Origin: a virus
Virus record (IMG/VR): IMGVR_UViG_3300017635_000002
Span: 1-41,007 of that record
DNA: 41,007 nucleotides
Reading direction: 5' to 3' (one strand)
The notes beneath the pieces were generated by a model. That model did no database searches. It had not been told where the DNA came from and saw only the letters and a program-made list of their open reading frames with translations. The position numbers and the translations under genes are program-made. Below are positions 22,385-34,684 of this stretch, one piece after another; the first letter of the stretch is position 1; each line of letters opens with the position of its first letter.

Positions 22385-22429
22385 CAAAAACAACGAAAAT
22401 CGGGCGAGTCGTTAGTGACTCGCCCGATT
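22385..22429 (-). terminator. Strong intrinsic terminator after the 177-aa gene
   Basis: A 13-bp perfect stem (AATCGGGCGAGTC and its complement, 22398-22410 with 22417-22429) with a 6-base loop is followed on the minus strand by the T-rich stretch TTTTCGTTGTTTTT. It lies between the 177-aa and 57-aa genes, so it should reduce expression of the latter. A further T-run on the plus side (22441-22446) may give weak activity in the other direction. Confidence 0.8.
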
Positions 22430-22459: not shown

Positions 22460-22993
22460 TTAAAGCCCCAGATCAGATAGCAAGCTGTCAGTATCGACAG
22501 TTTTGGCAGGGGTTTTCGCCGCCTTCAGCGTTTCGATAATCGCGGCGATATCCGCGACGTTACGCAATGCCAATTGTTCAGCGCGAGTCTTGCTGTCATA
22601 CACAGCGCGGATAGCTTCCGGCGTGGGGACGGGTTTTTTCGCCGCCTTCGCCCGATCAGCGACCCACTGGCTAAATGCGCGGAAGATAACACCCGCAACA
22701 GGTCCGGCGCCTTCACCCCGCGACTGTTTCCATTCACCGTCGATCAGACGATCAGCTACGGCTTTCATCGCGTGGTATTTGTCGGAAGGAGTTGAGTCTT
22801 TCCCCAGCGCAGCAGCATCGGAGATTTTTTGCACTAGGCCATGATACATTGCGCGCTCGGTTATTTCATCGGCGAGCTTCGATGTATCGACTGTGATTTT
22901 CGCGTCGCTACCGTCATCCATTGCGCCGACAATTGTGAACGCGATGACTGACGAGTCGATTGCGACAGATACTACAGAATTTTTACGTGCCAT
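22460..22993 (-). CDS. Early protein P1, 177 aa, with LLSDLGL tail
   Basis: The frame is open to 23092, but ATG at 22993 has AGGA eight bases upstream and gives a protein starting MARKNSVVSVAIDSS. The C-terminal two thirds are clearly related to the 190-aa protein encoded at 24628-25200 on the opposite strand. Shared features are HGxxQK, GEW, AG-F/V-AG, TPExI, SKT/TKT with AE-x-x-ALR, and the tail TVDTDSLLSDLGL. The N-terminal beta-rich third differs. I know of no assigned function. Its own promoter, a strong terminator right after it, and the early divergent location suggest abundant early expression, perhaps for a DNA-binding or regulatory protein. Confidence 0.8.
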   Translation of the reverse strand: MARKNSVVSVAIDSSVIAFTIVGAMDDGSDAKITVDTSKLADEITERAMYHGLVQKISDAAALGKDSTPSDKYHAMKAVADRLIDGEWKQSRGEGAGPVAGVIFRAFSQWVADRAKAAKKPVPTPEAIRAVYDSKTRAEQLALRNVADIAAIIETLKAAKTPAKTVDTDSLLSDLGL

Positions 22994-23015
22994 GATATTT
23001 TTCCTACTCATTACA

Positions 23016-23067
23016 TTGCGACTCGGCGGGATTGCGTCGTCGCTGTCATTACAATACCGAGTCGCAA
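23016..23067. repeat. 11-bp inverted repeat at the P1 promoter
   Basis: TTGCGACTCGG at 23016-23026 and its exact complement at 23057-23067 are 30 bases apart. The right arm lies between the -35 and -10 boxes of the leftward promoter candidate and the left arm in the leader, so the arrangement looks like a paired operator rather than an mRNA hairpin. A second, shorter dyad (CAATAC/GTATTG) overlaps the same promoter. Confidence 0.6.
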
Positions 23068-23078
23068 CAGTATTGCAA
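23051..23078 (-). promoter_or_regulatory. Candidate leftward early promoter
   Basis: Minus-strand TTGCAA, a 16-base spacer and TATTGT would start transcription about 50 bases upstream of the 177-aa gene. Each hexamer matches the sigma-70 consensus in four of six positions. Two inverted repeats overlap it. Confidence 0.45.
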
Positions 23079-23104
23079 GCCCCTAAATGCACATAGTCAT
23101 ATAG

Positions 23105-23166
23105 GTGTGATTTTCGCCGGTAGATCGGTCACAGATTAACCGTGCGTAGCGCGGCGAAAATCACAC
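23105..23166. repeat. 15-bp perfect inverted repeat
   Basis: GTGTGATTTTCGCCG at 23105-23119 and its exact complement at 23152-23166 flank a 32-base centre. The centre has a smaller CGGT/ACCG pair. It lies upstream of both divergent promoters, has no T-run, and could form a cruciform. It may be an origin element or an operator for divergent control. Confidence 0.65.
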
Positions 23167-23480
23167 TCTCTGCACCCCATAAAACCTATCGATCAGCCTA
23201 CAGATCGAAGCCTCGAACCAATCACCATAGCATCACTACGATTAACCAAGCTGCTGACTAATTGTCAGCCTCTAACCCCCGATTAGATCGATCAATAAGC
23301 TTTCGATCAATTTCCCAAAGCCTGCATAATAGGCAAATCGACTCGGAAATGGGATTGGAAATTGGCTTAGACCAAAAACCCATTTTCGGCATTTAAAGAG
23401 CGCGCGTATGCGTGATGCGCGTGCGCGGGTAGCGAGATCGATCGGATTAGTCAACTATGTTTTATCCCTTAAACCTCGCA

Positions 23481-23509
23481 TTGACTACAACCGATCTGCA
23501 TGGCATAAA
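23481..23509 (+). promoter_or_regulatory. Candidate rightward early promoter
   Basis: TTGACT, a 17-base spacer and CATAAA lie about 45 bases upstream of the first rightward gene. The match to sigma-70 consensus is good (five and four of six) with ideal spacing. Confidence 0.6.
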
Positions 23510-23555
23510 TTTTAACGGTGGGCTGGTCCACTAACTTCAAAAGGACGATATTACT

Positions 23556-23729
23556 ATGGTAAGACGAAAAGCAGAACCCGAAGCAGCGTTTGCGCCTTGG
23601 GAACCGAACCCATCCGACCCTGATGACTCGATCAAGGAAGCGGCATATCACCGCTCGATCGTGGAGGAGATGTATCCTGAGTCGATCGGGGCTGAACCTG
23701 TCGAAGGTGAAGAAACCGAAGTCGAATAA
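23556..23729 (+). CDS. First rightward early protein, 57 aa, acidic
   Basis: ATG at 23556 has AAGGA ten bases upstream. The protein has a short basic N-terminus (MVRRKAEPE) and an otherwise strongly acidic sequence ending GEETEVE. Its size, charge and position as the first gene after the early promoter are those of phage proteins that bind host enzymes or mimic DNA, but this is inference. No family recognised. A hairpin follows it. Confidence 0.7.
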   Translation: MVRRKAEPEAAFAPWEPNPSDPDDSIKEAAYHRSIVEEMYPESIGAEPVEGEETEVE

Positions 23730-23735
23730 CAACCT

Positions 23736-23761
23736 CGGGGACAGGGCGAAAACCTTGTCCC
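23736..23761 (+). other. Hairpin between early genes
   Basis: GGGGACA and TGTCCCC pair around a short A-rich loop. No T-run follows, so this is probably an mRNA processing or stability structure rather than a terminator. Confidence 0.5.
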
Positions 23762-23785
23762 CATCTAATCTGGAAGCCCAATCCA

Positions 23786-24202
23786 ATGTCCAAAGACCTA
23801 CCTAGAGAAAAGCGCATCTACCTCGCCATATGGCGAAAAGTCTGGCGGGAACAACTCGATCAGTTGGTTATCAAGATGCCATCCTACAACGTCGCAATGT
23901 CTGTACGAATGGCGATGTATCGCACAGTCCGGCCTTATCGCGAAGGTGCATTGTTCGATAATGAACTCAAACTATCATCAGAGAAATATGTTCTGAGTCT
24001 CCAGAGAACCCCACCCGCGATCGTCGTGACACTTCGCCAGACTGCTGAGGTCGCGGAAGATGTTTTCGCCAGCCTAGGCTTCGACGAAGAGGACCTCATG
24101 TCGGAAGAGGAACTCATGGCTATGCGAATAGCGGAGAATGTTTCGGATGAGGTCTCCGCACCCCCGACTGGCGAAAACCCCTTCTTCACTCGGGAGGATT
24201 AA
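23786..24202 (+). CDS. Early protein of unknown function, 138 aa
   Basis: The N-terminal half is basic and helical with aromatic residues (REKRIYLAIWRKVWREQ). The C-terminal half is acidic (EEDLMSEEELMAMRIAENV). The polarity suggests a protein-protein adaptor or a small regulator, but there is no recognisable domain. It lies second in the rightward early unit, three bases before the next gene. No strong ribosome binding site precedes its ATG. Confidence 0.65.
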   Translation: MSKDLPREKRIYLAIWRKVWREQLDQLVIKMPSYNVAMSVRMAMYRTVRPYREGALFDNELKLSSEKYVLSLQRTPPAIVVTLRQTAEVAEDVFASLGFDEEDLMSEEELMAMRIAENVSDEVSAPPTGENPFFTRED

Positions 24203-24205
24203 CCC

Positions 24206-24541
24206 ATGACATGGGATTACAAGCCACCACCAAATTTCTCCAAATCAATCTCATCGATCTTGTCCAACACCCTCGAACAACCCGACATGGTTCTTCATAT
24301 CTACTTCCGAACCGAGTCCGAAACTCGATCGTTCGCTGAAAAGTTCCGCCACTTCCGCTGGTGTGTTCGCAAAGTCCCCGATCGGGCTGGGCATTTCTAT
24401 CCCTTAGAAATGCAATATGACTATCGAACGAAGGTAATGTTTTCGCCGCAATCCGGCCATTATCTGCGTATAACCGCGATTGAGAACAGATTAGGCTATC
24501 TAATGGCGCTAAATCCATGGATTATGTCCCTAGCCTCATAA
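24206..24541 (+). CDS. Early protein of unknown function, 111 aa
   Basis: ATG at 24206 follows the previous stop by three bases, and GGAGG lies ten bases upstream inside the preceding gene. The protein is mildly basic and rich in aromatic residues (HFRWCVRKVPDRAGHFYP, YDYRTKVMF) with no signal peptide. I recognise no family. It closes the first rightward unit; a new promoter candidate follows. Confidence 0.65.
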   Translation: MTWDYKPPPNFSKSISSILSNTLEQPDMVLHIYFRTESETRSFAEKFRHFRWCVRKVPDRAGHFYPLEMQYDYRTKVMFSPQSGHYLRITAIENRLGYLMALNPWIMSLAS

Positions 24542-24547
24542 ACCCCA

Positions 24548-24576
24548 TTGACGGCGATCAATCTCCATGACATTGT
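24548..24576 (+). promoter_or_regulatory. Candidate promoter for the P2 gene
   Basis: TTGACG, a 17-base spacer and CATTGT precede the 190-aa gene by about 50 bases. With the tandem terminators that follow that gene, this makes P2 a possible single-gene unit. Confidence 0.5.
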
Positions 24577-24627
24577 TAATCGTGGATTGCAAATCCCGCC
24601 TACTTAAACCTAGAAGGAATTACCATC

Positions 24628-25200
24628 ATGGCTGAAGCCGCAGTAAAAACCCCCGTCACCCTTGCCGACGGTCGCGTCGTAGAATTTGGCGCAAAGCAGA
24701 AGTTGCAGAAGAACTCCACAATCGAAGGCGATACCGTCACCACCGAATTGATCTTCCGCAATGGCGAAGTCCGCACCTTCACTCCTCCGGCATCACTCAT
24801 CGCCCGCTTCGTCGCACATGGCGTTGAACAGAAGCTCGGCGATTGCATCGCAGGAGAAACCGACCCTGACGATCAGGTTCTCGCAGTCGAAGACCTCATC
24901 GCCCGCCTTACCGCTGGTGAATGGAATGTAGGTCGGTCAAGTGCCGGTTCGTTCGCTGGGACTTCCATCCTCGCTCGTGCCCTCGTCGAAGTGTCTGGCA
25001 AGACGCCGGAAGAAATCAAGGCCTATCTGTCTACCAAGACTCAGGCGGAAAAGATCGCACTTCGTGGTTCGAACCAACTCAAAGCCGTTATTCAGCGCAT
25101 GGAAGCTGAAAAGCAGTCGAAGACGAAATCGACGGTGGATACCGATAGCTTGCTCGGTGAACTGGGCCTCGACGCACCGACCAAGAAGTCGAAGGACTAA
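24628..25200 (+). CDS. Early protein P2, 190 aa, paralogue of P1
   Basis: ATG at 24628 has AGAAGGAA upstream. The N-terminal 55 residues are beta-rich (LADGRVVEFGAKQKLQKNS, then ELIFRNGEVRTFT). The rest aligns with P1: AHGVEQKLGD, TAGEW, GSFAGT, GKTPEEIKAYLSTKTQAEKI and TVDTDSLLGELGL. A charged extension DAPTKKSKD follows the tail. I recall similar unnamed proteins in other environmental phages but no assigned function. It has its own promoter and very strong termination, as expected for an abundant protein such as a nucleic-acid-binding or host-takeover factor. Confidence 0.8.
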   Translation: MAEAAVKTPVTLADGRVVEFGAKQKLQKNSTIEGDTVTTELIFRNGEVRTFTPPASLIARFVAHGVEQKLGDCIAGETDPDDQVLAVEDLIARLTAGEWNVGRSSAGSFAGTSILARALVEVSGKTPEEIKAYLSTKTQAEKIALRGSNQLKAVIQRMEAEKQSKTKSTVDTDSLLGELGLDAPTKKSKD

Positions 25201-25244
25201 CCCTTCCCCAACAGCTAGGTGGGTCGCATAGGAAGCCTAGCTTA

Positions 25245-25278
25245 AAAACCGCAGGTTGCTCCTACTTCCTGCGGTTTT
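25245..25278 (+). terminator. First of tandem terminators after P2
   Basis: An 11-bp stem AAAACCGCAGG/CCTGCGGTTTT with a 12-base loop. The ascending arm ends in TTTT, and the descending A-run makes it potentially bidirectional. A weaker AGCTAGG/CCTAGCT hairpin lies just upstream at 25213-25242. Confidence 0.8.
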
Positions 25279-25279
25279 C

Positions 25280-25327
25280 ACCCCCGACAAGATCGCCTCC
25301 CTCCCGCGATCGAGTCGGGGGTTTTTT
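25280..25327 (+). terminator. Second tandem terminator after P2
   Basis: ACCCCCGAC (25280-25288) pairs with GTCGGGGGT (25314-25322), with an inner GATCGC/GCGATC extension. A run of T at 25322-25327 follows. This is a classical strong intrinsic terminator and isolates P2 from the small-gene cluster. Confidence 0.85.
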
Positions 25328-25351
25328 ATCGAGTGGAGCTTGCGATACGAT

Positions 25352-25380
25352 TTGACAATCCGGTGCGGTTTTGCTATGGA
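25352..25380 (+). promoter_or_regulatory. Strong promoter of the small-gene cluster
   Basis: TTGACA, a 17-base spacer and TATGGA give the best sigma-70 match in the window. It lies right after the tandem terminators and about 50 bases upstream of the first gene of the cluster. The spacer and -10 box are covered by dyad element copy d, so this promoter is probably regulated by whatever binds that element. Confidence 0.75.
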
Positions 25381-25389
25381 TAACCCGCA
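25362..25389 (+). promoter_or_regulatory. 28-bp dyad element, copy d
   Basis: Reads GGTGCGGTTT, eight variable bases, then ATAACCCGCA. The left half lies between the -35 and -10 boxes and the right half at the expected transcription start. This geometry is that of a repressor operator. Confidence 0.65.
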
Positions 25390-25431
25390 GCAGTTTCACT
25401 GTCGCAAACACTTGAATAGTAGGAGACTTCA

Positions 25432-25632
25432 ATGCCAAGGGCAATCACCCTCATCATAGCGGAAGTAGTGCAGTTAAACCCTGATCTATCTCCTCTTGCG
25501 GCTGAGCATCTTGTTCAGATCAAGCAACCAACCGATCGCTTTCACATCCGGTCGTTCTTATACAACGCTAAATCTTGGCGCGGGTTCGCAGCACGGAGGA
25601 TTAAAGCAGAACTTAGGGAGTATTTGAAATGA
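25432..25632 (+). CDS. Small protein, 66 aa
   Basis: ATG at 25432 with GGAG upstream. The protein is basic in its C-terminal half (FAARRIKAELREYLK) with a hydrophobic N-terminal helix that is too short to be a confident membrane segment. First gene of the small-gene cluster; its stop overlaps the next ATG. No family recognised. Confidence 0.65.
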   Translation: MPRAITLIIAEVVQLNPDLSPLAAEHLVQIKQPTDRFHIRSFLYNAKSWRGFAARRIKAELREYLK

Positions 25633-25832
25633 CAGACGCAAGAGTTACAATCCAAACCAAGAAGTTCGAAGACCTATCAACCGATCGTGCAGCAGACTTC
25701 ATGGAAAAGACGATGAAGGACCATCCTGATATGAACTTCCTAATGACCATCGCGCTTCTACTCGCATGGAAACAAGGCTGGGAAGCCTGCATGAAGGAAG
25801 CCACAACCTACGGTGTGGAGAAAACAGCATGA
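25629..25832 (+). CDS. Small protein, 67 aa
   Basis: ATG at 25629 overlaps the previous stop as ATGA. The sequence is helical with a possible amphipathic segment (MNFLMTIALLLAWKQGWEAC) and ends TYGVEKTA. Possibly membrane-associated. It is translationally coupled on both sides. No family recognised. Confidence 0.65.
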   Translation: MTDARVTIQTKKFEDLSTDRAADFMEKTMKDHPDMNFLMTIALLLAWKQGWEACMKEATTYGVEKTA

Positions 25833-26341
25833 CCGACAACTTCGACATATTTGCAGAACTCGACGCGGAAATCGCACAAGCCACCGCCAAGCCCAAACTC
25901 GAAAAGGACCGCAAGGCTTTGATGGCGAAACTCCGCGACAATCGCTTATCTCGCGAAGCCGCAGCAAATATCCGAAACGAGCTTTCCGCCGTTGATCAGA
26001 TGCTGGACTCCATCATCTGGACTCCCATGTCAGCCGTTGCCTTCTTCGTCCAGCAAGACTGCGATGCTTGCGGTTCCACCCACAAGGTATTCCTCCAACA
26101 CATGGAGAAGCAATCCACTGGAACCCACAACCCAACCACTCGCTACAAGCGTGTGCGCCGACCGAACCCTGATCTCCCTTGCGAAGTCGTGGTCCAACAA
26201 TCCACCACTCACATTTGCGCCGATTGTTGCGAGGATTTCGGCTTCTCTTTCCCATCCGCGGAAATCAAGTTCGTCTCAACCGAGGCGCCGTTTGCCATTT
26301 CCCCAACTTATGAACAGGATGATCTTTATGCCGAGAGCTAA
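25829..26341 (+). CDS. Zinc-ribbon protein, 170 aa
   Basis: ATG at 25829 overlaps the previous TGA as ATGA; this start gives MTDNFDIFAELDAE. The N-terminal 60 residues are helical. Two CxxC pairs (Cys78/Cys81 in CDACGS and Cys130/Cys133 in CADCC), about 50 residues apart, suggest one zinc-binding module. Function unknown; nucleic-acid or protein binding is likely. It overlaps the next gene by 14 bases. Confidence 0.75.
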   Translation: MTDNFDIFAELDAEIAQATAKPKLEKDRKALMAKLRDNRLSREAAANIRNELSAVDQMLDSIIWTPMSAVAFFVQQDCDACGSTHKVFLQHMEKQSTGTHNPTTRYKRVRRPNPDLPCEVVVQQSTTHICADCCEDFGFSFPSAEIKFVSTEAPFAISPTYEQDDLYAES

Positions 26342-26516
26342 GAAAATCGATCGACCGCAGCACGTCTCGGTCCGACTCCCAACCTCCATCGTGGCGAAGC
26401 TCGAAATCGAGCTATTCTCCGACCTCATCGGCGCAGTGCCTCACGGCGCGAAGTCGGAACTGATCGAAAAACTCATCCGCGAGTGGCTGGTGAATGAGCG
26501 GGGTGTGTCATGTTAA
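26328..26516 (+). CDS. Ribbon-helix-helix-like DNA-binding protein, 62 aa
   Basis: ATG at 26328 has AGGA eight bases upstream. After a basic start (MPRAKKIDRPQ), the sequence HVSVRLPTSIVAKLEIEL resembles the beta strand and first helix of a CopG/Arc ribbon-helix-helix repressor. AKSELIEKLIREWLVN then follows as the second helix. It is the only clear small transcription-factor candidate in the early region, so it might recognise one of the repeated dyad elements. That link is inference. Confidence 0.6.
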   Translation: MPRAKKIDRPQHVSVRLPTSIVAKLEIELFSDLIGAVPHGAKSELIEKLIREWLVNERGVSC

Positions 26517-26614
26517 AAGAATGGCATATGCTTGTATTCATCGCCTTTGGTATGGCAGTGCTTACCTTCGGCGTGATCGGGATAGCTATAGCAACAAGGA
26601 TACCATCATGCTGA
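26510..26614 (+). CDS. Small membrane protein, 34 aa
   Basis: ATG at 26510 overlaps the end of the preceding gene by seven bases, and its stop overlaps the next start. The product MLKEWHMLVFIAFGMAVLTF continues into GVIGIAIAT, a single membrane helix. The ribosome binding site is weak, so coupling is likely. Coding is supported by the fit to both neighbours. Confidence 0.5.
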   Translation: MLKEWHMLVFIAFGMAVLTFGVIGIAIATRIPSC

Positions 26615-26865
26615 CACATTCGATACAAGTCGATAAATATCGTTCAGGCAATCTGAAGTTATTGTTCGAAGGAACTGGCGATGGCTGGGCGGTTGGTAAG
26701 ATCGCTGAATTTTTCCTCGACTACGGAGTGGTTGATCAGGTCTTGGCCTTAAAACCAAACGAACGGCATTGCTTCGGTATTTACGAAGATGTTGACGAGT
26801 CCTACGAAGTCACCATCACTCGTATATCTTATTCCGCACAGGAGCTAACCAATGCAGGAAACTAA
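26608..26865 (+). CDS. Small protein, 85 aa
   Basis: ATG at 26608 has AAGGA seven bases upstream, so it is preferred to an upstream in-frame start at 26494. The protein is acidic with beta/alpha character (KLLFEGTGDGWAVGKIAEFF, then FGIYEDVDESYEVTITRI). No family recognised. It overlaps the next gene by 14 bases. Confidence 0.65.
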   Translation: MLTHSIQVDKYRSGNLKLLFEGTGDGWAVGKIAEFFLDYGVVDQVLALKPNERHCFGIYEDVDESYEVTITRISYSAQELTNAGN

Positions 26866-27118
26866 GATCATCCCCCAGCGCCGATCTCACGGCCGGAAGT
26901 GGGTCCAGTGCGAGCCACATCAAGCCCAGCGCTTCTGCCTATGTAAGGGTATCCGCATCCTTCAAGTCTACCCAACCATGGAAGCCGCGAAGAAGAACCT
27001 CGCATCGAACTCCCACAAACCGATCAAGCCAATGACCGTCGGTGAGCGATACAAACCCGACTGGCGTGGGACTTATGCTAAGTCACTAACTCAAGACGAA
27101 TACAGGAGACTGACATGA
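26852..27118 (+). CDS. Basic protein, 88 aa
   Basis: ATG at 26852 is preceded by AGGAG. The protein is strongly basic (QRRSHGRKWVQ, AAKKNLASNSHKPIKP) with Cys at CEPH and FCLCKG; these could form a small metal site. A nucleic-acid-binding role is plausible. Stop and next start overlap (ATGA). Confidence 0.6.
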   Translation: MQETKIIPQRRSHGRKWVQCEPHQAQRFCLCKGIRILQVYPTMEAAKKNLASNSHKPIKPMTVGERYKPDWRGTYAKSLTQDEYRRLT

Positions 27119-27285
27119 AAATCACACTCACCACCGATCGCAAAGTCACCAAGATCGAGGGTTCCGACTTCTCGATCACACTGAATGGCAAGACCAATGC
27201 GGAGTATTCGAAGATACTATCCGCCCTCGGCGTTGAACTGATCTGGAAAGACCCCGAAATTCTGGAGGCTATGACAAAGTCATGA
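27115..27285 (+). CDS. Small protein, 56 aa
   Basis: Coupled start ATG at 27115 (ATGA with the previous stop) and a good AGGAG nearby. The product begins MKITLTTDRKVTKIEGSDFS and looks like a compact beta/alpha domain. It overlaps the next start by four bases. Function unknown. Confidence 0.6.
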   Translation: MKITLTTDRKVTKIEGSDFSITLNGKTNAEYSKILSALGVELIWKDPEILEAMTKS

Positions 27286-27380
27286 TCAAGCGCATCTACA
27301 CCTACAACGAAGTCGGTCATGCGACTCCACTCGCATGGTGGAAGTATCCCTTCATCTGGATTTGGGAGTTACGGAAATGA
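27282..27380 (+). CDS. Small Trp-rich protein, 32 aa
   Basis: ATG at 27282 overlaps the preceding stop, and the stop TGA overlaps the next ATG. The product MIKRIYTYNEVGHATPLAWW continues into KYPFIWIWELRK and is rich in Trp and Tyr, so it may lie at a membrane surface. Supported only by the exact coupling on both sides. Confidence 0.45.
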   Translation: MIKRIYTYNEVGHATPLAWWKYPFIWIWELRK

Positions 27381-27655
27381 AAACACTCGCTATTCTATTG
27401 GCTTTACAAGCCACAACCCTACCCTCAACTGTCGAGCGCGCAGCCTACATCTACGGTCGGTGTTATGCTTATCTATCACCTTCAGATAAGACCATCATCA
27501 ACACACAGCTGCAATCGAAAGGTGAACTTGTTCGGCTGTTCAACCTCGGTATTACCGAGACCAAGCGCAATCCGATCTCGCGGAACACTTGCATCTCGAA
27601 TATCGAGGCGGTTAGGTTGCAGCTGGAGACTTTCTTCCCGCGGAAGGGGAATTAA
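27377..27655 (+). CDS. Possible exported early protein, 92 aa
   Basis: ATG at 27377 overlaps the previous stop (ATGA). The N-terminus MKTLAILLALQATTLPSTVE has a short hydrophobic core after one Lys, consistent with a signal peptide. Two Cys residues in the remainder (GRCYAY and NTCISN) could form a disulphide in the periplasm. An exported early product could act in superinfection exclusion, which is inference. The hydrophobic core is short, so a cytoplasmic fate is possible. Confidence 0.6.
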   Translation: MKTLAILLALQATTLPSTVERAAYIYGRCYAYLSPSDKTIINTQLQSKGELVRLFNLGITETKRNPISRNTCISNIEAVRLQLETFFPRKGN

Positions 27656-27656
27656 A

Positions 27657-27698
27657 ATGCCTAACACCCTTATATTGAAAGGAATGGAAGATGGATAA
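27657..27698 (+). CDS. Possible 13-aa coupling peptide
   Basis: ATG at 27657 follows GGGGA at a good distance, encodes MPNTLILKGMEDG and ends inside the start region of the 102-aa gene. It may only serve to deliver ribosomes to that gene, or be chance. Confidence 0.25.
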   Translation: MPNTLILKGMEDG

Positions 27699-27999
27699 AC
27701 AATCCACTAACCTTTTGAACGCAAGGCAAGAGGTTGAGCATCTGCGCAAAGTCATAACAATTGCATACCGCGAATTGCGGGAATTGGCTTCTATTGGCGG
27801 CGACGGTTCAGATGGGAACCTATGGCAGAAGCATCATGAGATCGCCGATAAGTTGTTCAGCGACAGTCGCTATATGTATCAGCACGATATGCGGCAATGG
27901 GTTCCGCTGGCGGACTTTGCTGAACTACTAAAGCGGACAAGGCGGTTGGAAACTGAAGTCATTTTGCTTCGTCCCCTTCAAGCAAAGGAACCATCATGA
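27691..27999 (+). CDS. Helical protein, 102 aa
   Basis: ATG at 27691 with AAAGGAATGGAAG upstream. The protein has helical heptad-like stretches (ARQEVEHLRKVITIAYRELR at the start and KRTRRLETEVILLRPLQ at the end) around a His/Trp/Tyr-rich middle. No catalytic motif seen. It overlaps the next small gene by four bases. Confidence 0.65.
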   Translation: MDKQSTNLLNARQEVEHLRKVITIAYRELRELASIGGDGSDGNLWQKHHEIADKLFSDSRYMYQHDMRQWVPLADFAELLKRTRRLETEVILLRPLQAKEPS

Positions 28000-28067
28000 C
28001 CCTCATAACCAGACTAGAGCAAGCAGAGGCGGTCATAGCAAGTTTGAAGGCTGCGGGACATGAGTGA
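27996..28067 (+). CDS. Small helical peptide, 23 aa
   Basis: ATG at 27996 overlaps the previous stop and has AAAGGA six bases upstream. The product MTLITRLEQAEAVIASLKAA ends GHE and would be one amphipathic helix. Its stop overlaps the next ATG region by eight bases. The strong ribosome binding site supports translation. Confidence 0.45.
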   Translation: MTLITRLEQAEAVIASLKAAGHE

Positions 28068-28248
28068 GACACCTAATCTGCGCTGGTTTGAGCAATTCAG
28101 CAGTTGCAGAATTTGCGGCAAGCGGTCTGACGGAATTTTACGAGGCAGCACGAACGAAAGCTATGGGCCGCACTGCAACAAGTGCGCCAACAAGCGGCTA
28201 ACGGCAAGTGAGAAAGTCCGCAAATCATTGGAGAACAGCCATGACTGA
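28060..28248 (+). CDS. Zinc-finger protein, 62 aa
   Basis: Four Cys residues in CRIC (16, 19) and CNKC (39, 42) form a classic CxxC-x19-CxxC zinc ribbon, followed by a basic helix (KRLTASEKVRKSL). The start is ATG at 28060, overlapping the previous gene. Probably binds nucleic acid or a host protein. Confidence 0.7.
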   Translation: MSETPNLRWFEQFSSCRICGKRSDGILRGSTNESYGPHCNKCANKRLTASEKVRKSLENSHD

Positions 28249-28519
28249 CCCCCACCAGATAGCGAAAGGGCTGACACCCTTGCAGGCTGATGCACTTGAG
28301 CGATGCTGTGCACGAGGCTCCACCCGATGCAACGACGGAGGGCTAGTCGATGACTTGCTTTCCGGCCTCTGCACTAGCCCCGACCGGACGATACTCAATG
28401 GCTGGCTGGTCAAATGGGCGATGAACCCGACAAGCCGAGAGGATGGCTATATCAGTCGTTACACGCCAACCGACCTCGGCCAAGCAGTCCGCGCAATTAT
28501 CGAAAGGGATAGTAAGTGA
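28241..28519 (+). CDS. Small protein, 92 aa
   Basis: ATG at 28241 overlaps the preceding gene by eight bases. The protein has a helical N-terminus with paired Cys (LERCCARGSTRC), and its overall pattern (HQIAKGLTPLQADAL, then YTPTDLGQAVRAII) resembles a small winged-helix-like domain. This is tentative. The stop overlaps the next GTG start as GTGA. Confidence 0.6.
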   Translation: MTDPHQIAKGLTPLQADALERCCARGSTRCNDGGLVDDLLSGLCTSPDRTILNGWLVKWAMNPTSREDGYISRYTPTDLGQAVRAIIERDSK

Positions 28520-28770
28520 GCATCGACAAAAAGGTAGCTGAATTGCTCGGCATGGGGAACGACCCCAAACTTGTCCGAAGCATGGCAGACGCGGCAGCAC
28601 AGATGGTTTCCGGCGCGACCTATAAGCACCGCGACTATAACCAGCCCGCGATATTTGAAGGGACAATATCAGACGGCCTTATGGCTTCCATGCGCTTTGT
28701 GGGCGGCGTTCAATTTGCAGCCGACCCGCGCAAGTTGACGCCTATTGAGGAGCATAGCGATGGGAAGTGA
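28516..28770 (+). CDS. Small protein, 84 aa
   Basis: GTG start at 28516 overlaps the previous TGA. The product is Ala/Met/Gly-rich with no recognisable motif (ADAAAQMVSGATYKHRDYN). It overlaps the next gene by 11 bases. Coding is supported by tight coupling. Confidence 0.55.
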   Translation: MSIDKKVAELLGMGNDPKLVRSMADAAAQMVSGATYKHRDYNQPAIFEGTISDGLMASMRFVGGVQFAADPRKLTPIEEHSDGK

Positions 28771-28951
28771 GAGAGAGCAGACGAAGCCAAGCGAGTTGCT
28801 GGATGCAATCGGTGAATTGGCAATGGCCATTAAGCCGCATTTTCTTGAAAACAATCAGCGCGAGAAGATCGCTAAGGCCCTACACGTATTGGTGGACCAC
28901 ATCATTGCCGCAAGCGGCGACCACTTAACCACAGAAAGGACTGACAAATGA
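28760..28951 (+). CDS. Small helical protein, 63 aa
   Basis: ATG at 28760 has GAGGAG seven bases upstream, preferred to the in-frame upstream start at 28745. The product is helical (SELLDAIGELAMAIKPHF, IAKALHVLVDHIIAA) and ends TTERTDK, encoded by the repeated initiation cassette described at 28934. Function unknown. Confidence 0.6.
   Translation: MGSEREQTKPSELLDAIGELAMAIKPHFLENNQREKIAKALHVLVDHIIAASGDHLTTERTDK
28934..28947 (+). repeat. Repeated translation-initiation cassette, copy 1
   Basis: GAAAGGACTGACAA stands directly before the ATG at 28948 and is repeated at 29176-29189 and 29315-29328 before two other starts. Copies 1 and 2 share 19 bases. The cassette supplies the ribosome binding site of one gene and the last codons (ERTD) of the previous one. 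Confidence 0.8.
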
Positions 28952-29196
28952 AAATTGACCGCAGCAAAGAATGGTGGCTTGAGCGGATTAAGGATGAAGG
29001 CGACTATGAAATTGGCGCTGGCGTCCCTGACAAACTGCCTTGGCAATGGCCACAGTGGGCGCTTGAAATACGTGCCCTGTTCGCATGGACTTGGCGTATT
29101 GGGCTTATCAAACGCACAACCGCCTTCCGTTGGGAGATGGACCGCTTATTAGGCGTAACAACTCGACGCGCCACAGAAAGGACTGACAATGGGTAA
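28948..29196 (+). CDS. Trp-rich protein, 82 aa
   Basis: ATG at 28948 follows the repeated GAAAGGACTGACAA cassette and overlaps the previous stop. The protein has many Trp residues (KEWWLERI, PWQWPQWAL, FAWTWRIG) and ends TERTDNG. A membrane-surface or protein-binding role is possible. No family recognised. Confidence 0.6.
   Translation: MKIDRSKEWWLERIKDEGDYEIGAGVPDKLPWQWPQWALEIRALFAWTWRIGLIKRTTAFRWEMDRLLGVTTRRATERTDNG
29176..29189 (+). repeat. Repeated translation-initiation cassette, copy 2
   Basis: Second copy of GAAAGGACTGACAA; its last base is the first base of the ATG at 29189. The preceding bases CCACA are also shared with copy 1. Confidence 0.8.
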
Positions 29197-29347
29197 AAGC
29201 ATCTTCTGCCTAATCCGGCACAAGTGGGGGCCTTACAACAATATGGGCCGCTCTCTTGCAGAGGTATTTGCGGGCAATCGGCTTGCGCGTTCATGCCAGC
29301 GTTGCGGCAAGATTGAAAGGACTGACAATGGAGGCCAGCATGAGTGA
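29189..29347 (+). CDS. Small Cys-containing protein, 52 aa
   Basis: ATG at 29189 is provided by the repeated cassette. The product starts MGKSIFCLIRHKWGPYNN and contains CQRCGK near the C-terminus, a zinc-knuckle-like pair, with Cys7 and His11 as possible further ligands. It ends IERTDNGGQHE, again encoded by the cassette. Function unknown. Confidence 0.55.
   Translation: MGKSIFCLIRHKWGPYNNMGRSLAEVFAGNRLARSCQRCGKIERTDNGGQHE
29315..29328 (+). repeat. Repeated translation-initiation cassette, copy 3
   Basis: Third copy of GAAAGGACTGACAA before the ATG at 29328. Outside the 14-mer it differs from the other two. Confidence 0.8.
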
Positions 29348-29426
29348 TGTGGTCGCAATTCTTGCCTTGTTTGTGGCCGCTTATGCAATCGCATCGATAA
29401 TCACTATGATCAAAGAGGGGTTTTAA
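29328..29426 (+). CDS. Small membrane protein, 32 aa
   Basis: ATG at 29328 follows the third cassette; an internal ATG at 29340 has GGAGG five bases before it and may be the true start. Either gives a single membrane helix (VVAILALFVAAYAIASIITM) with a short charged tail. It is the last clear gene of the cluster; a 7-codon frame at 29430-29453 follows. Confidence 0.5.
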   Translation: MEASMSDVVAILALFVAAYAIASIITMIKEGF

Positions 29427-29462
29427 CCAATGACCAAAGACGACTCCGCTTAAAATCCCCTA

Positions 29463-29491
29463 TTGACACAACATTAATTCCAGAGTAAACC
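29463..29491 (+). promoter_or_regulatory. Candidate promoter of the replication block
   Basis: TTGACA, a 17-base spacer and TAAACC precede the helicase start by about 45 bases. The -35 box is perfect and the -10 box is weak. No dyad element copy is present here, which may set its timing apart. Confidence 0.55.
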
Positions 29492-29537
29492 AACCCTCCA
29501 CCTACCGGCGAAAGCCATTACCTGAAAAGGAAGCCCA

Positions 29538-30869
29538 ATGACTGAAGAAGTTATCACTACCGAAACACCGGAGCCAGTAAAGTTCGCTCCCACACCCGAT
29601 CAGCAAGAAGCCTTGGACCTGATGACGGAGTGGCTTTTCACCGGCTACGACACCAGCCCGAAATTCTCCCACCCATCCCCCTACTTCCTCCTCAAAGGCT
29701 ACGCTGGAACCGGCAAGACCTTCTGCATACAGGAGCTCGTCAATGCCGGAACATTCAAACCCTCCGAAATCTGTTTCACGGCCCCTACAAATAAAGCCGT
29801 TAAAGTTCTGCGAAACTATTTGGATGAAGCTTCCTTGCAGGACTGCGCGACCAAAACCATCTACTCTCTGCTCGGCCTGTCCCTTCAAGCCAATGGGGAA
29901 GTAAAGGAACTCCAGAAACCCGAAGAACCCGTCGATCTATCCCGCTACAAGGTCATAGTCGTCGACGAAGCCTCGATGATCAATCGCTTCCTCATGGACG
30001 CTATTCACGACGCTTTCTCCGACTGGTCTGTCCCATTCATCTTCATGGGCGACCCCGCACAGCTACCTCCTGTAGGTGAAATATCCTCCCCTGTTTGGAA
30101 GATTGAAAACGGCTACACCCTCACCAAAGTCCTGCGGTATGGTAATTCGATGCTTGACTTGGCCACCGCAATCCGCAACGTCGTGGATAATCCTTTCCCG
30201 TCGATCAAGATCGTCACCAATCCCCCTGTGCATCGAGTCACAAAGCCCGAATGGCTTGATCAGATCGAAGCGAACCTCGAACTCTTCAAATCCGATGAAG
30301 CGAAAATCATAACATGGCGGAATGTCAAGGTCGATGAATACAACACCTACATCCGAAACCTGATCTTCGGTCGTGCTGAAGCCAAGGCGGAAAAATGGCT
30401 ACCGACTGACAAGATCGTCGCGACCTCCCGCGTGACTGATCTCGACAAGAACGTCATCCTCCAAACCGATGAAACCGCAGAAGTCCTGCAAGTCACCGAG
30501 GGCTTCCATCCGATGTATCACGAGTTTGATATATTCAATATCCTTGCACTGGACGAGCGAGATCGAAAGATCACCCTCCGTGTTCTGACCGACACAGGTG
30601 CGTTCAAGCTCTCCAACCGCCTGAACGAATTATCAATGGAAGCCAAGGGCGGCAAACGCTACAAATGGAGAGAGTTCTGGGAGTTGAAAGAAGCCTTCGC
30701 GGAAATCCGACATTCCTATGCCATTACTTCTCACCGATCGCAAGGCTCATCCTACCGCAAGGTTTTCGTCGACCTCGAGGACCTGATGTTGAACCGGAAC
30801 AAGGCCGAGGCGTTTCGATCGTTGTATGTCTCTTGCACCCGCCAGCGGGAAGAGCTGTGGATAACATGA
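29538..30869 (+). CDS. SF1B DNA helicase (RecD/Dda-like)
   Basis: The 443-aa protein has Walker A GYAGTGKT (54-61), motif Ia TAPTNKA (81-87), motif II VVDEAS (141-146) and motif III GDPAQLPP (171-178). The C-terminal motifs are TSHRSQGSSY and VSCTRQREEL at the very end, as in UvrD_C_2 domains. It matches the Dda/RecD2 group of 5'-3' helicases in size and motif order. It would remodel replication forks or assist origin opening and recombination. ATG at 29538 has AAAGGA upstream. The stop overlaps the next ATG (ATGA). Confidence 0.9.
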   Translation: MTEEVITTETPEPVKFAPTPDQQEALDLMTEWLFTGYDTSPKFSHPSPYFLLKGYAGTGKTFCIQELVNAGTFKPSEICFTAPTNKAVKVLRNYLDEASLQDCATKTIYSLLGLSLQANGEVKELQKPEEPVDLSRYKVIVVDEASMINRFLMDAIHDAFSDWSVPFIFMGDPAQLPPVGEISSPVWKIENGYTLTKVLRYGNSMLDLATAIRNVVDNPFPSIKIVTNPPVHRVTKPEWLDQIEANLELFKSDEAKIITWRNVKVDEYNTYIRNLIFGRAEAKAEKWLPTDKIVATSRVTDLDKNVILQTDETAEVLQVTEGFHPMYHEFDIFNILALDERDRKITLRVLTDTGAFKLSNRLNELSMEAKGGKRYKWREFWELKEAFAEIRHSYAITSHRSQGSSYRKVFVDLEDLMLNRNKAEAFRSLYVSCTRQREELWIT

Positions 30870-31285
30870 TACAGGAAACTGAAAGTCCGATAACCTCATG
30901 GAGAAGCATGATGCAAAGATGCTTAAATCCTAACCATGTTTACTTTGAAAATTATGGAGGTCGTGGAATAACAATAGACCCATCTTGGGAGTCTTATGCT
31001 AACTTTCGCGCAGATATGGGCAGGAGGCCGAAAGGCTTTACCTTAGAACGCATTGACAACTCTAAAGGCTATTCAAAAGAAAACTGCAAATGGGCTACAC
31101 CTTCTGAACAGCAAAGAAACAGAAGACAGCTTAAAAATAATACTTCAGGCGTTACAGGAGTTTCGTGGGATAAAGCCAGACAAAGGTGGATGGCCCATGG
31201 AACAGTGGATGGAATTAAAATGGTTCTTTACCGAGGCCCAAGTAAAGAGGCTGCGATAGAGGCTAGAAAAAGTATTGAAGCTTAA
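30866..31285 (+). CDS. HNH/AP2 homing-endonuclease-like protein, 139 aa
   Basis: The frame is open further upstream, but ATG at 30866 overlaps the helicase stop as ATGA. The protein has WRSMMQRCLNPNH at the start, then LERIDNSKGYSKENCKWAT and EQQRNRR, typical of small phage HNH-type endonucleases. A C-terminal AP2-like DNA-binding part follows (GVTGVSWDKARQRW, with MVLYRG). The DNA is visibly richer in A and T than its neighbours, suggesting transfer as a mobile gene. A free-standing homing endonuclease is the likely role; activity is not proven. Confidence 0.75.
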   Translation: MIQETESPITSWRSMMQRCLNPNHVYFENYGGRGITIDPSWESYANFRADMGRRPKGFTLERIDNSKGYSKENCKWATPSEQQRNRRQLKNNTSGVTGVSWDKARQRWMAHGTVDGIKMVLYRGPSKEAAIEARKSIEA

Positions 31286-31293
31286 CATCACAG

Positions 31294-31322
31294 TTGACTA
31301 ATTCCCGCACCCGTTATAAAAT
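31294..31322 (+). promoter_or_regulatory. Candidate promoter after the HNH gene
   Basis: TTGACT, a 17-base spacer and TAAAAT, about 30 bases upstream of the 65-aa gene. Dyad element copy e covers the -10 box, and CCCGCACC occurs on both sides of it (31304-31311 and 31328-31335). Confidence 0.65.
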
Positions 31323-31335
31323 CAAAACCCGCACC
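31308..31335. promoter_or_regulatory. 28-bp dyad element, copy e
   Basis: On the minus strand it reads GGTGCGGGTT, eight variable bases, then ATAACGGGTG. On the plus strand the right end is AACCCGCACC. It resembles copy a closely in the first 23 positions (21 identical). Because it is nearly symmetric its orientation is ambiguous. Confidence 0.6.
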
Positions 31336-31351
31336 AGAAAAGGACCACTTT

Positions 31352-31549
31352 ATGTCCGTATCACTTGAAATGCAACAGAAGGTCGCCGACTGGCGAACTC
31401 GTGCCCGTGACGGCACACTAACACTCGATGAAATGAAGGAAGCCATTACCTTCCTCCGTGCTGAACGGCAAGCCATGCCACCGGCGAAGTCCCGCACAGC
31501 CAAGCCCAAGGTCAATGCTGATGATCTGCTGTCGGAGTTGGGGCTGTGA
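31352..31549 (+). CDS. Small protein P3, 65 aa, with LLSELGL tail
   Basis: ATG at 31352 has AAAAGGA upstream. The helical N-terminal part (MQQKVADWRTRARDGTLTLD, then EMKEAITFLRAERQ) resembles short phage proteins I have seen next to replication genes. A basic linker leads to the C-terminus NADDLLSELGL, matching the tail of P1 and P2. This suggests a common partner or docking site. It lies immediately upstream of the nuclease region. Function unknown. Confidence 0.7.
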   Translation: MSVSLEMQQKVADWRTRARDGTLTLDEMKEAITFLRAERQAMPPAKSRTAKPKVNADDLLSELGL

Positions 31550-32079
31550 TACTGGAAGGTCCGCATGGACAGCTATTCGATCTCAATGATATAGTAGACA
31601 GACAACTCTTACTAGATCTTATGAACCAACACTTACAAGTAGGAAAAACCTCATGCCCGAAATCATCCCCTTCCCTCACGCCATCGACTCCACCACCCTC
31701 GCCGCTTTCCGAAGCTGCCCGCAAAAAGCCTTCCGAACCTACTTCCAACACTACAAACCCCTCGGCGAGTCAGTCCATCTCGTGGCTGGAAAAGCATTTG
31801 CGGAAGGTATCGAGCATGCCCGACGTGCTTACTATGAGCAAGAACGAACTCCTGACGATAGTATTGCTATCGGACTTAAGGCTCTTATCGAGTCTTATGG
31901 AGATTTCGAGTGCCCGCCCGAGTCTGCAAAATCGCTGGAACGCACAGCTGGCGCTCTCGAGTTTTATTTCCAATCTTATCCACTGGGCGTCGACTCTGCC
32001 ATTCCAATCTCCTTCCCTGACGGGCGGAGCGGAATTGAATTTTCATTTGCACAACCTCTGCCGATTAATCATCCGATAA
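31546..32079 (+). CDS. Possible overlapping reading frame, 177 codons
   Basis: GTG at 31546 overlaps the P3 stop (GTGA). The first 36 codons lie between genes and read like protein (MILEGPHGQLFDLNDIVDRQ, then LLLDLMNQHLQVGK). The frame continues for 426 bases across the nuclease gene, where it becomes Ser/Pro-rich as expected for a shadow frame. Either a real out-of-frame gene exists or only a short peptide with an accidental extension. Confidence 0.3.
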   Translation: MILEGPHGQLFDLNDIVDRQLLLDLMNQHLQVGKTSCPKSSPSLTPSTPPPSPLSEAARKKPSEPTSNTTNPSASQSISWLEKHLRKVSSMPDVLTMSKNELLTIVLLSDLRLLSSLMEISSARPSLQNRWNAQLALSSFISNLIHWASTLPFQSPSLTGGAELNFHLHNLCRLIIR

Positions 32080-32627
32080 CCGGCGATCCACTTCTATACA
32101 CCGGACGTGCGGATATGATCGCGCACTTTGCTGGAGGAGTCTACATCTATGACGAAAAGACTACATCGCAGCTTGGTGCCTCTTGGGGCAAACAGTGGGA
32201 AATGCGAAGCCAGTTTACTGGCTATTGTTGGGCTGCCCGAGAATTCGGATACAACCCTTCTGGAGTTATTGTGCGTGGCGTTAGTATTCTTAAAACAAAA
32301 TACGACACTCTCGAAGTCCCAACTTATCGAAGCGATTACGAGATCGATCGATGGCTGGTACAAGTCTGCGAAGACCTCGAACGCATGATGTGGTCTTGGA
32401 AGCGCGGGTATTGGGACTACAATCTCGATCACTCATGTGCAGAGTATGGAGGCTGCTCACTATTACAAGTCTGCAAGTCCCCGTCCCCCGATCAGTGGCT
32501 GGATACCTACTTCGAACGCCGAGTCTGGGACCCACTCCACCGCCGTGAGGTATCATGGCAGGAGTATCTGGAGTCCCGCAAGGACGATATCGCCATGACT
32601 GAAGCTTGGCTTTCCGCCAATGTCTAA
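31653..32627 (+). CDS. Cas4/RecB-like PD-(D/E)xK nuclease
   Basis: The 324-aa protein has the N-terminal Cys of FRSCPQKAF (Cys22) and catalytic residues in GRADM (Asp154) and YDEKT (Asp167, Lys169). A downstream QFTGYCWAA Gln motif follows. Three C-terminal Cys residues spaced C-x5-C-x5-C (262, 268, 274) complete the four Cys of an iron-sulphur cluster, as in the Cas4/AddB group. It would process DNA ends during recombination and replication. ATG at 31653 has AGGA eight bases upstream. It lies just before a RecA-like ATPase, a common phage pairing. Confidence 0.85.
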   Translation: MPEIIPFPHAIDSTTLAAFRSCPQKAFRTYFQHYKPLGESVHLVAGKAFAEGIEHARRAYYEQERTPDDSIAIGLKALIESYGDFECPPESAKSLERTAGALEFYFQSYPLGVDSAIPISFPDGRSGIEFSFAQPLPINHPITGDPLLYTGRADMIAHFAGGVYIYDEKTTSQLGASWGKQWEMRSQFTGYCWAAREFGYNPSGVIVRGVSILKTKYDTLEVPTYRSDYEIDRWLVQVCEDLERMMWSWKRGYWDYNLDHSCAEYGGCSLLQVCKSPSPDQWLDTYFERRVWDPLHRREVSWQEYLESRKDDIAMTEAWLSANV

Positions 32628-33063
32628 CATAACCGCAATCTACTTTCACGAGGATGATTACCTCGGCTACGAGGACCTGACCCTGCCCACTGGTCAGTCC
32701 TTCGCCGGTTATTCTAAATCATTCTTCTGCGAGTCTTGCGGTCGCGTGTATGGTCGCCGAGTGATCGTTGTCCTTGGTCAGAAGCAACCATACACCACTT
32801 GGGGAGGCCTGTGCAAGAATTGCTCACCCGTCGGCGGAGAGTGGCATGGAGCCTATTCTCATTCCATACCGGGAGGTCTCCCCTTTTTCTATTCGTATAA
32901 AAACCCACCAGAAGGCGCTATTCGCCATCAACTAGAAATGGAACTACTTACCTATGCCCGACGCAATCCAACTGAACCCACCCTTCACCCTTCCCGGAGT
33001 CAATGTCCTTCTAATGGGACCATCGGGGACCGGCAAGACTCACTCCATCGGCACGCTTGTTGA
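32620..33063 (+). CDS. Zinc-ribbon protein, 147 aa
   Basis: ATG at 32620 overlaps the nuclease stop by eight bases. Cys37/Cys40 (CESCG) and Cys65/Cys68 (CKNCS) form a zinc ribbon. A Gly/Pro/Tyr-rich region follows. The gene overlaps the ATPase by 110 bases, so its last 36 codons (Ser/Pro/Arg-rich) share DNA with the ATPase N-terminus. A partner protein for the recombination enzymes is plausible. Confidence 0.65.
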   Translation: MSNITAIYFHEDDYLGYEDLTLPTGQSFAGYSKSFFCESCGRVYGRRVIVVLGQKQPYTTWGGLCKNCSPVGGEWHGAYSHSIPGGLPFFYSYKNPPEGAIRHQLEMELLTYARRNPTEPTLHPSRSQCPSNGTIGDRQDSLHRHAC

Positions 33064-34234: not shown

Positions 34235-34684
34235 ATGTCATTTGATCCAAACACATTCTTGAACCAAACATTCGACGAGTCCAACGACACCAAGATCACT
34301 CCATGCCCAGTCGGGGAATACCTCGCAGTCGCAGACAAGGTTGACGTGAAACCTTGGGCTTCTCGCGATGGTTCCTCATCCGGCCTGAAAGTCGAAATCC
34401 TGTGGGATATCCAAGACGAAAACGTCAAGGCACTCCTCGGTCGCGACTCGGTTAAAGTCCCGCAGCAACAAATGCTGGACCTTACCGAGACCGGCCAGTT
34501 GGACTTCGGCAAAGGCAAAAACGTCGGCCTCGGTCGTATTCGTGAAGCCCTGGACCTCAACACTCCGGGCGAGCCATTCGCGATCTCGATGTTCCAAGGT
34601 CGTATGGCAACCGTGAAGGTATCGCATCGCATCAATGGTGAAGATATCTATCACGAAGTCAAGGGCCTTACCAAGCCCGCATAA
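34235..34684 (+). CDS. Candidate single-stranded DNA-binding protein, 149 aa
   Basis: The protein is beta-rich with an OB-fold-like pattern (GLKVEILWDIQDENVK, RMATVKVSHRI) and resembles proteins encoded after Sak4-type ATPases in other phages (DUF669-like). It lacks an acidic C-terminal tail, ending KGLTKPA. It is followed by an intrinsic terminator, suggesting high expression, as expected for an SSB. Assignment is from context and composition. Confidence 0.55.
   Translation: MSFDPNTFLNQTFDESNDTKITPCPVGEYLAVADKVDVKPWASRDGSSSGLKVEILWDIQDENVKALLGRDSVKVPQQQMLDLTETGQLDFGKGKNVGLGRIREALDLNTPGEPFAISMFQGRMATVKVSHRINGEDIYHEVKGLTKPA

What the first reader, a model, noticed from the sequence alone, without database searches (positions are those of the whole stretch)
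22460..31549. Two divergent paralogues and a third small protein share a C-terminal LL(S/G)(D/E)LGL tail
The 177-aa protein on the minus strand and the 190-aa protein on the plus strand align over most of their length (HGxxQK, GEW, TPExI, AE-x-x-ALR). They end in TVDTDSLLSDLGL and TVDTDSLLGELGL. The unrelated 65-aa protein at 31352-31549 ends NADDLLSELGL. Conservation of the tail across different folds suggests a short docking motif for a common partner, by analogy with SSB tails or sliding-clamp peptides. Both paralogues have their own promoters and strong terminators, so they are likely abundant early proteins.
Basis: partly seen in the sequence, partly recalled or inferred. Interest (0 to 1): 0.68.

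Follow-up and report, generated by a model that had tools for sequence, protein, structure and literature searches.

The report
Shared docking tail on phage proteins
A group of little-known phages puts the same short acidic, leucine-rich tail on the end of several otherwise unrelated proteins of its DNA-replication gene set, which most likely works as a common plug that docks them all onto one still unidentified partner.

Summary
A1 (22460-22993, minus, 177 aa) and B (31352-31549, 65 aa) end exactly in the motif. In A2 (24628-25200, 190 aa) nine residues follow it (DAPTKKSKD). A1 and A2 are 32% identical paralogues. B is unrelated to them once the tail is removed.

About 70 A and 72 B homologues show the tail, [VI]-[DN]-x-[DE]-x-L-L-x-[DE]-[LF], conserved behind a variable linker. 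A matrix trained on A tails alone scores 57 of 72 B C-termini at 12 bits or more, against 8 of 10,180 other reading frames. A blind tail-plus-stop scan of 2.9 million viral contigs gave ten true C-terminal hits; all ten were A or B. The three tails vary together within a phage. The tail also ends a SprT-like protease and a cysteine-rich protein in two relatives.

A1, A2 and B travel with a replication/recombination module (PolA, Sak4, PD-DEXK nuclease, a 149-aa protein, ParB-methyltransferase), even where capsid genes differ. No sliding clamp or SSB was detected in the window. Best reading: a portable docking motif for one unidentified hub, built like T4 clamp-binding tails but with another sequence. 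Promoters unsupported; terminators supported.

The parts
22460..22993 (-). A1: 177-aa paralogue (in-frame GTG start possible at 23092)
   Evidence: orthologues
22463..22501 (-). tail of A1: TVDTDSLLSDLGL, strictly C-terminal
   Evidence: sequence
24628..25200 (+). A2: 190-aa paralogue; predicted N-terminal beta domain plus helical domain plus short tail helix (172-178)
   Evidence: AlphaFold2 mean pLDDT 89
25132..25170 (+). tail of A2: TVDTDSLLGELGL, followed by 9 residues DAPTKKSKD before the stop
   Evidence: sequence
31352..31549 (+). B: 65-aa predicted helical hairpin plus linker plus tail, between the Dda-like helicase region and the PD-(D/E)XK nuclease
31511..31546 (+). tail of B: VNADDLLSELGL, strictly C-terminal
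   Evidence: sequence
22398..22429 (-). intrinsic terminator after A1 (13-bp perfect stem)
25280..25328 (+). inverted repeat (17-nt arms, 88%) followed by T run after A2, terminator-like
31653..32627 (+). PD-(D/E)XK nuclease; in all 29 records with the tailed proteins; candidate hub
32954..33844 (+). Sak4-like recombinase; in all 29 records; candidate hub
34235..34684 (+). 149-aa conserved protein, possibly DUF669/SSB-like (weak, 2 of 26 members); candidate hub
34757..36112 (+). ParB-N domain fused to an N6/N4 DNA methyltransferase; candidate hub
36523..38886 (+). family A DNA polymerase with N-terminal UDG-like and 3'-5' exonuclease domains; candidate hub
38879..40108 (+). DUF3987/primase-like protein of the module; not found in G017, which keeps tail-like C-termini

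Best explanation
The tail is a portable short linear docking motif, an acidic amphipathic segment [VI]-[DN]-x-[DE]-x-L-L-x-[DE]-[LF] on a flexible linker. It tethers A1, A2, B, and in some phages other proteins, to one common hub of the phage's replication/recombination module. Shown here: the motif is real, conserved on unrelated proteins, specific to this module and co-varying within genomes. Inferred: that it binds a protein, that all carriers share one partner, and that the partner is phage-encoded. Present in every record that covers that part of the genome, and so the leading hub candidates: PolA, Sak4, PD-DEXK nuclease, the 149-aa protein and the ParB-methyltransferase. The architecture (globular domain, variable linker, hydrophobic-acidic C-terminal peptide on several different proteins) works like the T4 gp43/gp55/gp33 sliding-clamp tails and, more loosely, the T7 helicase tail.
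For: Tail in nearly all of about 70 A and 72 B homologues, information content mostly 3.2-4.3 bits at the leucines and key acidic positions against about 1-2.5 bits in most of the linker. A-only matrix finds B tails: 57/72 against 8/10,180 other ORFs. No A-B homology outside the tail. Codons differ where residues agree, e.g. window A1/A2 8 shared residues but 3 shared codons, A1/B 7 and 1, A2/B 7 and 1, so this is selection on protein and not recent DNA copying. Blind DNA scan of IMG/VR with tail + 2 codons + stop: all 10 hits with a true stop are A (8) or B (2). Within-genome tail similarity exceeds permutation: A1-A2 0/5000, A1-B 24/5000, A2-B 52/5000; examples L027 LLADFG in all three, G017 VLAKFGF/VLAKLGV/LLAKFSL, Mel-JY34 LLEMFK/LLAKFA/VLDLFK. 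Two further unrelated carriers: SprT-like protein L060:4797-5306 ending VIDTDALLSQL and cysteine-rich protein L037:5595-6164 ending LDADEMLSELLEGL. Association with the replication module and not with the virion module. AlphaFold2 places a separate short helix at the tail in both A2 and B. [quoted passage not shown] PMC7892883). T7 helicase acidic tail binds the polymerase (PMC8472574).
Against: No partner identified and no binding shown. In one subgroup (L011, L016, L038, L053, L054 and relatives) A2 reads KVDADAELANI or similar, losing the first leucine, and where A1 was found there it has no tail, while B keeps it, so the tails can uncouple. The permutation test is not corrected for phylogeny. 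No sliding clamp or SSB homologue was detected in the window to serve as the textbook hub.
Confidence: 0.6

Rival explanations
1. Self-assembly: the tails plug into the body of A1/A2 themselves, so that A1, A2 and B form one complex and the hub is the A fold.
For: A is in every near-complete module-bearing genome of this size, nearly always as a pair. The tail helix of A2 is modelled with pLDDT about 76-82 rather than as disordered. A1-A2 tails co-vary most strongly.
Against: The 75-kb contig G010 holds the module and B with an intact tail but no detectable A; it carries two PolA-like genes and may be a chimera, so this is weak. The SprT-like carrier would also have to join such a complex.
Confidence: 0.17
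2. The hub is a host protein (for example DnaN or RNA polymerase) that the carriers jointly hijack.
For: Host hubs that read C-terminal peptides are common in bacteria (general knowledge). The last residues xLGL resemble those of the E. coli Pol IV clamp peptide QLVLGL (from memory, a lead only).
Against: The Q that defines the beta-clamp motif is absent from the tails; only Mel-JY34 B has a nearby Q. A host hub would be expected to be used by phages of many kinds, yet the motif scan returned only this module. Co-variation within single phages is easier with a phage-encoded or narrowly host-specific partner.
Confidence: 0.17
3. The tail is a C-terminal degradation or stability signal rather than a docking site.
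For: Short, hydrophobic and near the C-terminus in several proteins.
Against: In A2 the motif is followed by up to about 20 further residues, which a C-degron would not be expected to tolerate; acidic positions are conserved along with the leucines.
Confidence: 0.04
4. A virion-targeting signal, packaging the carriers into the capsid.
For: Phages can use short terminal peptides for capsid targeting (general knowledge; no tool result supports it here).
Against: The tail persists in phages whose capsid, portal and terminase genes are not detectably similar to the window's, including Mel-JY34, G017, G018 and G020, and on B in G009, G011 and G024.
Confidence: 0.02
5. Common descent by module shuffling without a docking role: a C-terminal segment copied between genes and drifting.
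For: A and B both place the tail behind a similar helix ([LM]K.[AV]I..[LM].AE[KR]; one search aligns 13 residues there).
Against: Drift would not hold the motif fixed behind a linker that changes in length and sequence, nor change three genes in parallel. Origin by shuffling is compatible with docking and may well be how the SprT-like protein got its tail.
Confidence: 0.05

Closest known systems
T4 sliding-clamp-binding motifs of gp43, gp55 and gp33 (PMC2988020, PMC7892883)
   Different: No sliding clamp (PF00712, PF02916) found in the window. The polymerase here is family A and carries no tail. The consensus differs, and no T4 counterpart of the carriers A and B was detected.
T7 gp4 helicase acidic C-terminal tail docking on gp5 (PMC8472574)
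   Same: Family A polymerase phage; acidic C-terminal tail that tethers replication proteins together.
   Different: The T7 tail is described as highly negatively charged and binds positive patches; here the most conserved residues are leucines. Carriers are not known to be homologous.
Bacterial beta-clamp-binding motif (QL[SD]LF / QLxLxL, from general knowledge)
   Same: Short leucine-rich peptide shared by unrelated replication proteins.
   Different: The Q is missing from the tails.
SSB C-terminal tip (DDDIPF-like, from general knowledge)
   Same: Acidic tail at the C-terminus serving several partners.
   Different: One SSB serves many partners; here many proteins carry the tail. No IPF tip, and no SSB homologue found in the window.
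SPRTN PIP box recruiting a SprT-type protease to PCNA (from general knowledge; papers located but not read)
   Same: In L060 a SprT-like protein carries the tail, which parallels recruitment of a SprT protease to the replication machinery.
   Different: Different motif; only one phage lineage seen with it; SprT-like score slightly below the Pfam cut-off.

Membership tests
T4-type sliding-clamp-binding motif | short hydrophobic-acidic C-terminal peptide behind a variable linker on several different proteins | tested here: met
T4-type sliding-clamp-binding motif | a phage sliding clamp as partner | tested here: not met
   no PF00712 or PF02916 match in the window at E<=1; a very divergent clamp is not excluded
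T4-type sliding-clamp-binding motif | the replicative polymerase carries the same tail | tested here: not met
   PolA C-termini end in SWG.C and score negative against the tail matrix
Bacterial beta-clamp-binding motif | glutamine at the first position of QLxLF or QLxLxL | tested here: not met
   tail lists and column counts; no Q at the corresponding position
SSB C-terminal tail | OB-fold SSB with DxIPF-type tip | tested here: not met
   no SSB PF00436 match in the window; tails end in LGL, LEGL, LE, LF and similar
T7 gp4-type acidic tail | binding to positive patches of the phage family A polymerase | not testable with these tools
   PolA is present in every record that covers that region; binding needs co-folding or an experiment
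Known protein families for A1/A2 | match to Pfam, PHROG or a solved structure | tested here: not met
   no Pfam family for A2; only PHROG 28928 (unknown function, 6 of 60 members, best E 5e-6); no PDB match with E<=0.001 by fold
H-NS N-terminal domain (for B) | sequence match to the H-NS dimerisation helices | tested here: inconclusive
   profile match to H-NS chains at E=0.0037 over 54 residues, but no H-NS family among the 25 Pfam families listed for the 53 members
SprT-like protease (L060 carrier) | SprT-like HMM match with HExxH | tested here: inconclusive
   PF10263 E=6.4e-5, 23.2 bits against cut-off 25.6; HEFAHH visible in the sequence

The most novel reading that the evidence does not exclude
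Phages with family A polymerases and no recognisable clamp use their own docking code: a portable tail that recruits an open set of clients (A1, A2, B, a SprT-like protease, a cysteine-rich protein) to an unrecognised hub among their conserved replication/recombination proteins, a clamp-like tool-belt without a clamp.
Probability: 0.35. Interest if true: 0.75.

Novelty: new variant of a known kind. Interest (0 to 1): 0.58.

Why it matters
Families A and B have essentially no annotation, yet they accompany the replication module of a widespread phage group, including a Microcystis phage. A motif that marks clients of one hub gives a direct handle on how this replisome is put together and a way to find further clients by reading C-termini. 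It also makes a testable case of convergent organisation with T4 and T7: a docking peptide shared by unrelated proteins, in phages where the usual hub, a sliding clamp, was not detected.

Tried and rejected
Chance resemblance: rejected. A and B as homologues: not supported without the tail. Recent gene conversion between the tails: not supported, codons differ (two rows of that output, L026 A1 and L025 A1, show codons that do not match the residues, so the script read the wrong DNA there, and they were ignored). Virion targeting: rejected because the tail outlives replacement of the virion module. Dda helicase as hub: disfavoured because it is missing from several tail-bearing records. DUF3987 as hub: disfavoured because G017 lacks it. 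Tail on core proteins: PolA, Sak4, nuclease, methyltransferase, 149-aa, DUF3987 and Dda do not carry it. Fold of A2: no informative PDB match; in the viral library only three unnamed viral entries at E<=0.001, one of them 47% identical. The 149-aa protein: only a weak DUF669 hint. Homologues of B in bacterial genomes: none confirmed. Annotated phages: only MW202489 and Mel-JY34 are convincing relatives. Relatives of the L060 SprT-like protein: only itself found. A second tail pattern with the stop directly after the motif: no hits. Further possible carriers, such as the HTH protein L011:2538-3098 ending NNANELLKELSS and L061:1957-2373, are too weak to claim. The paper searches for this module and for this kind of motif returned nothing.
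Full report
WHAT WAS CHECKED. The window is a virus record of its own, 41,007 bases with a 114-bp direct repeat at its ends. A1 (177 aa, minus) ends TVDTDSLLSDLGL and B (65 aa) ends VNADDLLSELGL. A2 (190 aa) carries TVDTDSLLGELGL followed by DAPTKKSKD, so its tail is nine residues from the end. A1 and A2 are paralogues, 32% identical.

RELATIVES. Scans of viral contigs and phage records gave 72 distinct B homologues and about 70 distinct A homologues. Two are annotated records: MW202489 (environmental phage, Manatee Spring) and Microcystis phage Mel-JY34, where all three proteins are 'hypothetical protein'. Genomes of the group typically carry two A paralogues: 28 of 30 searched records had at least one and nearly all of those had two, with one B each.

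THE TAIL IS CONSERVED AND SHARED. In nearly all members the C-terminal region reads [VI]-[DN]-x-[DE]-x-L-L-x-[DE]-[LF]. Column information is mostly 3.2-4.3 bits at the two leucines, the last hydrophobic residue and the key acidic positions, and about 1-2.5 bits in most of the linker before it. A matrix trained only on A tails recognises 57 of 72 B tails at 12 bits or more, against 8 of 10,180 other ORFs in the same loci and 10 of 7,200 shuffled B C-termini. Without the tail, A and B profiles do not match (probability 0.6%). The tails of one genome agree in residues more than in codons.

AN INDEPENDENT TEST. A DNA pattern holding nothing but the tail consensus, two free codons and a stop was run over 2.9 million viral contigs. 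It hit 13 places. Three end in TGG, which the degenerate stop symbol also allows, and are not C-termini. The other ten are all true C-termini and all belong to A (8) or B (2). One B (L177) ends PVDTDALLGELGL, the A2 consensus. The tail is therefore a marker of this gene set.

CO-VARIATION. Within genomes the tails resemble each other more than permuted pairs do: A1-A2 0 of 5,000 permutations reach the observed value, A1-B 24, A2-B 52 (no correction for phylogeny). Striking cases are L027 with LLADFG in all three, G017 with VLAKFGF, VLAKLGV and LLAKFSL, and Mel-JY34 with LLEMFK, LLAKFA and VLDLFK. Against this, in one subgroup A2 reads VDADAELANI or similar and A1, where found, has no tail, while B keeps a standard tail.

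OTHER CARRIERS. Scoring all other ORFs left two clear outliers: a SprT-like protein (L060:4797-5306, 24.7 bits, ending VIDTDALLSQL) and a cysteine-rich protein (L037:5595-6164, 22.3 bits, ending LDADEMLSELLEGL); shuffled controls gave 5.2 ORFs above 10 bits where 15 were seen, so hits near 10 bits are not evidence. Tails have thus been gained by proteins of other kinds.

WHAT TRAVELS WITH IT. In 29 records compared, PD-DEXK nuclease and Sak4 are in all 29; PolA, ParB-methyltransferase and the 149-aa protein are in 28, the exception being a 21.6-kb fragment. DUF3987 is missing from G017, whose early region was read, and from fragments. Dda is undetectable in many, and so are capsid, portal and terminase genes like the window's, including in the near-complete Mel-JY34, G009, G011, G018 and G024. 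The tail belongs to the replication/recombination module, not to the virion, and neither Dda nor probably DUF3987 is the hub.

STRUCTURE. AlphaFold2 with 60 homologues models A2 as an N-terminal beta domain (residues 8-51), helices to 166 and a separate tail helix 172-178 (mean pLDDT 89, pTM 0.62). Foldseek found no PDB match at E<=0.001 and in the viral library three unnamed entries at that level. B is modelled with lower confidence as two helices, a low-confidence linker and a tail helix 56-62 (mean pLDDT 71). B's hairpin resembles the H-NS N-terminus in sequence (E=0.0037), a lead only.

HOW IT MOST LIKELY WORKS. A flexible linker presents a short acidic, leucine-rich helix that fits a groove on one hub protein of the module; A1, A2 and B compete for or jointly occupy that hub and are thereby held at sites of phage DNA synthesis or recombination. 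The motif, its sharing, its specificity and its association with the module are shown. The binding, the single hub, its phage origin and the effect are inferred. T4 is the closest working model: its DNA polymerase, gp55 and gp33 share hydrophobic-acidic C-termini that bind the clamp gp45 and can be interchanged, with a highly divergent linker in gp55 (PMC2988020; PMC7892883). Membership in that system is not claimed: no clamp was found in the window and the polymerase has no tail. Beta-clamp and SSB-tail membership also fail on their defining residues.

VERDICT ON THE FINDING. Its claim that A2 ends in the motif is wrong by nine residues and its promoter claim is unsupported. Its docking idea is the best explanation, with an unknown partner.

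Noticed in passing
window 22513-24447: GGCGAAAA occurs 13 times in the window (about 2 expected, 0 of 100 shuffles reach 13) and 9 of these lie in 1.9 kb around A1 and the divergent early region, with a perfect 15-bp inverted repeat GTGTGATTTTCGCCG/CGGCGAAAATCACAC at 23105-23166; no such cluster in relatives. Iterons or operator sites are possible.
   Followed up: partly
window 23786-24202: The 138-aa protein family has its own conserved C-terminal tail, roughly [NT]P[FY][FY]xR (window NPFFTRED, MW202489 NPYYTRGD), a second possible docking peptide in the same early region.
   Followed up: no
window 25766-26341: The 191-aa cysteine-containing protein has a conserved Y.Q[ED]D end in the window's subgroup; a similar-looking protein in L037 carries the LL tail instead (homology judged by eye).
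   Followed up: no
window 36523-38886: Family A DNA polymerase fused to an N-terminal uracil-DNA-glycosylase-like domain.
   Followed up: no
window 34757-36112: ParB N-terminal domain fused to an N6/N4 DNA methyltransferase, conserved through the group.
   Followed up: no
window 30665-31285: 206-aa ORF between the Dda helicase and B whose sequence looks like an HNH/AP2-type homing endonuclease (by eye, not tested).
   Followed up: no
L189-L192 (G010, 75 kb): Contig with the replication module and B but no detectable A and a second PolA-like gene; recombinant phage or chimeric assembly.
   Followed up: partly
L003:4118-4513: 131-aa ORF ending VDNIPF, an SSB-like tip, without a Pfam SSB match.
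   Followed up: no
L019 (MW202489) 39992-40171: Annotated as class D beta-lactamase OXA-58 although only about 60 aa long; probably a spurious annotation.
   Followed up: no
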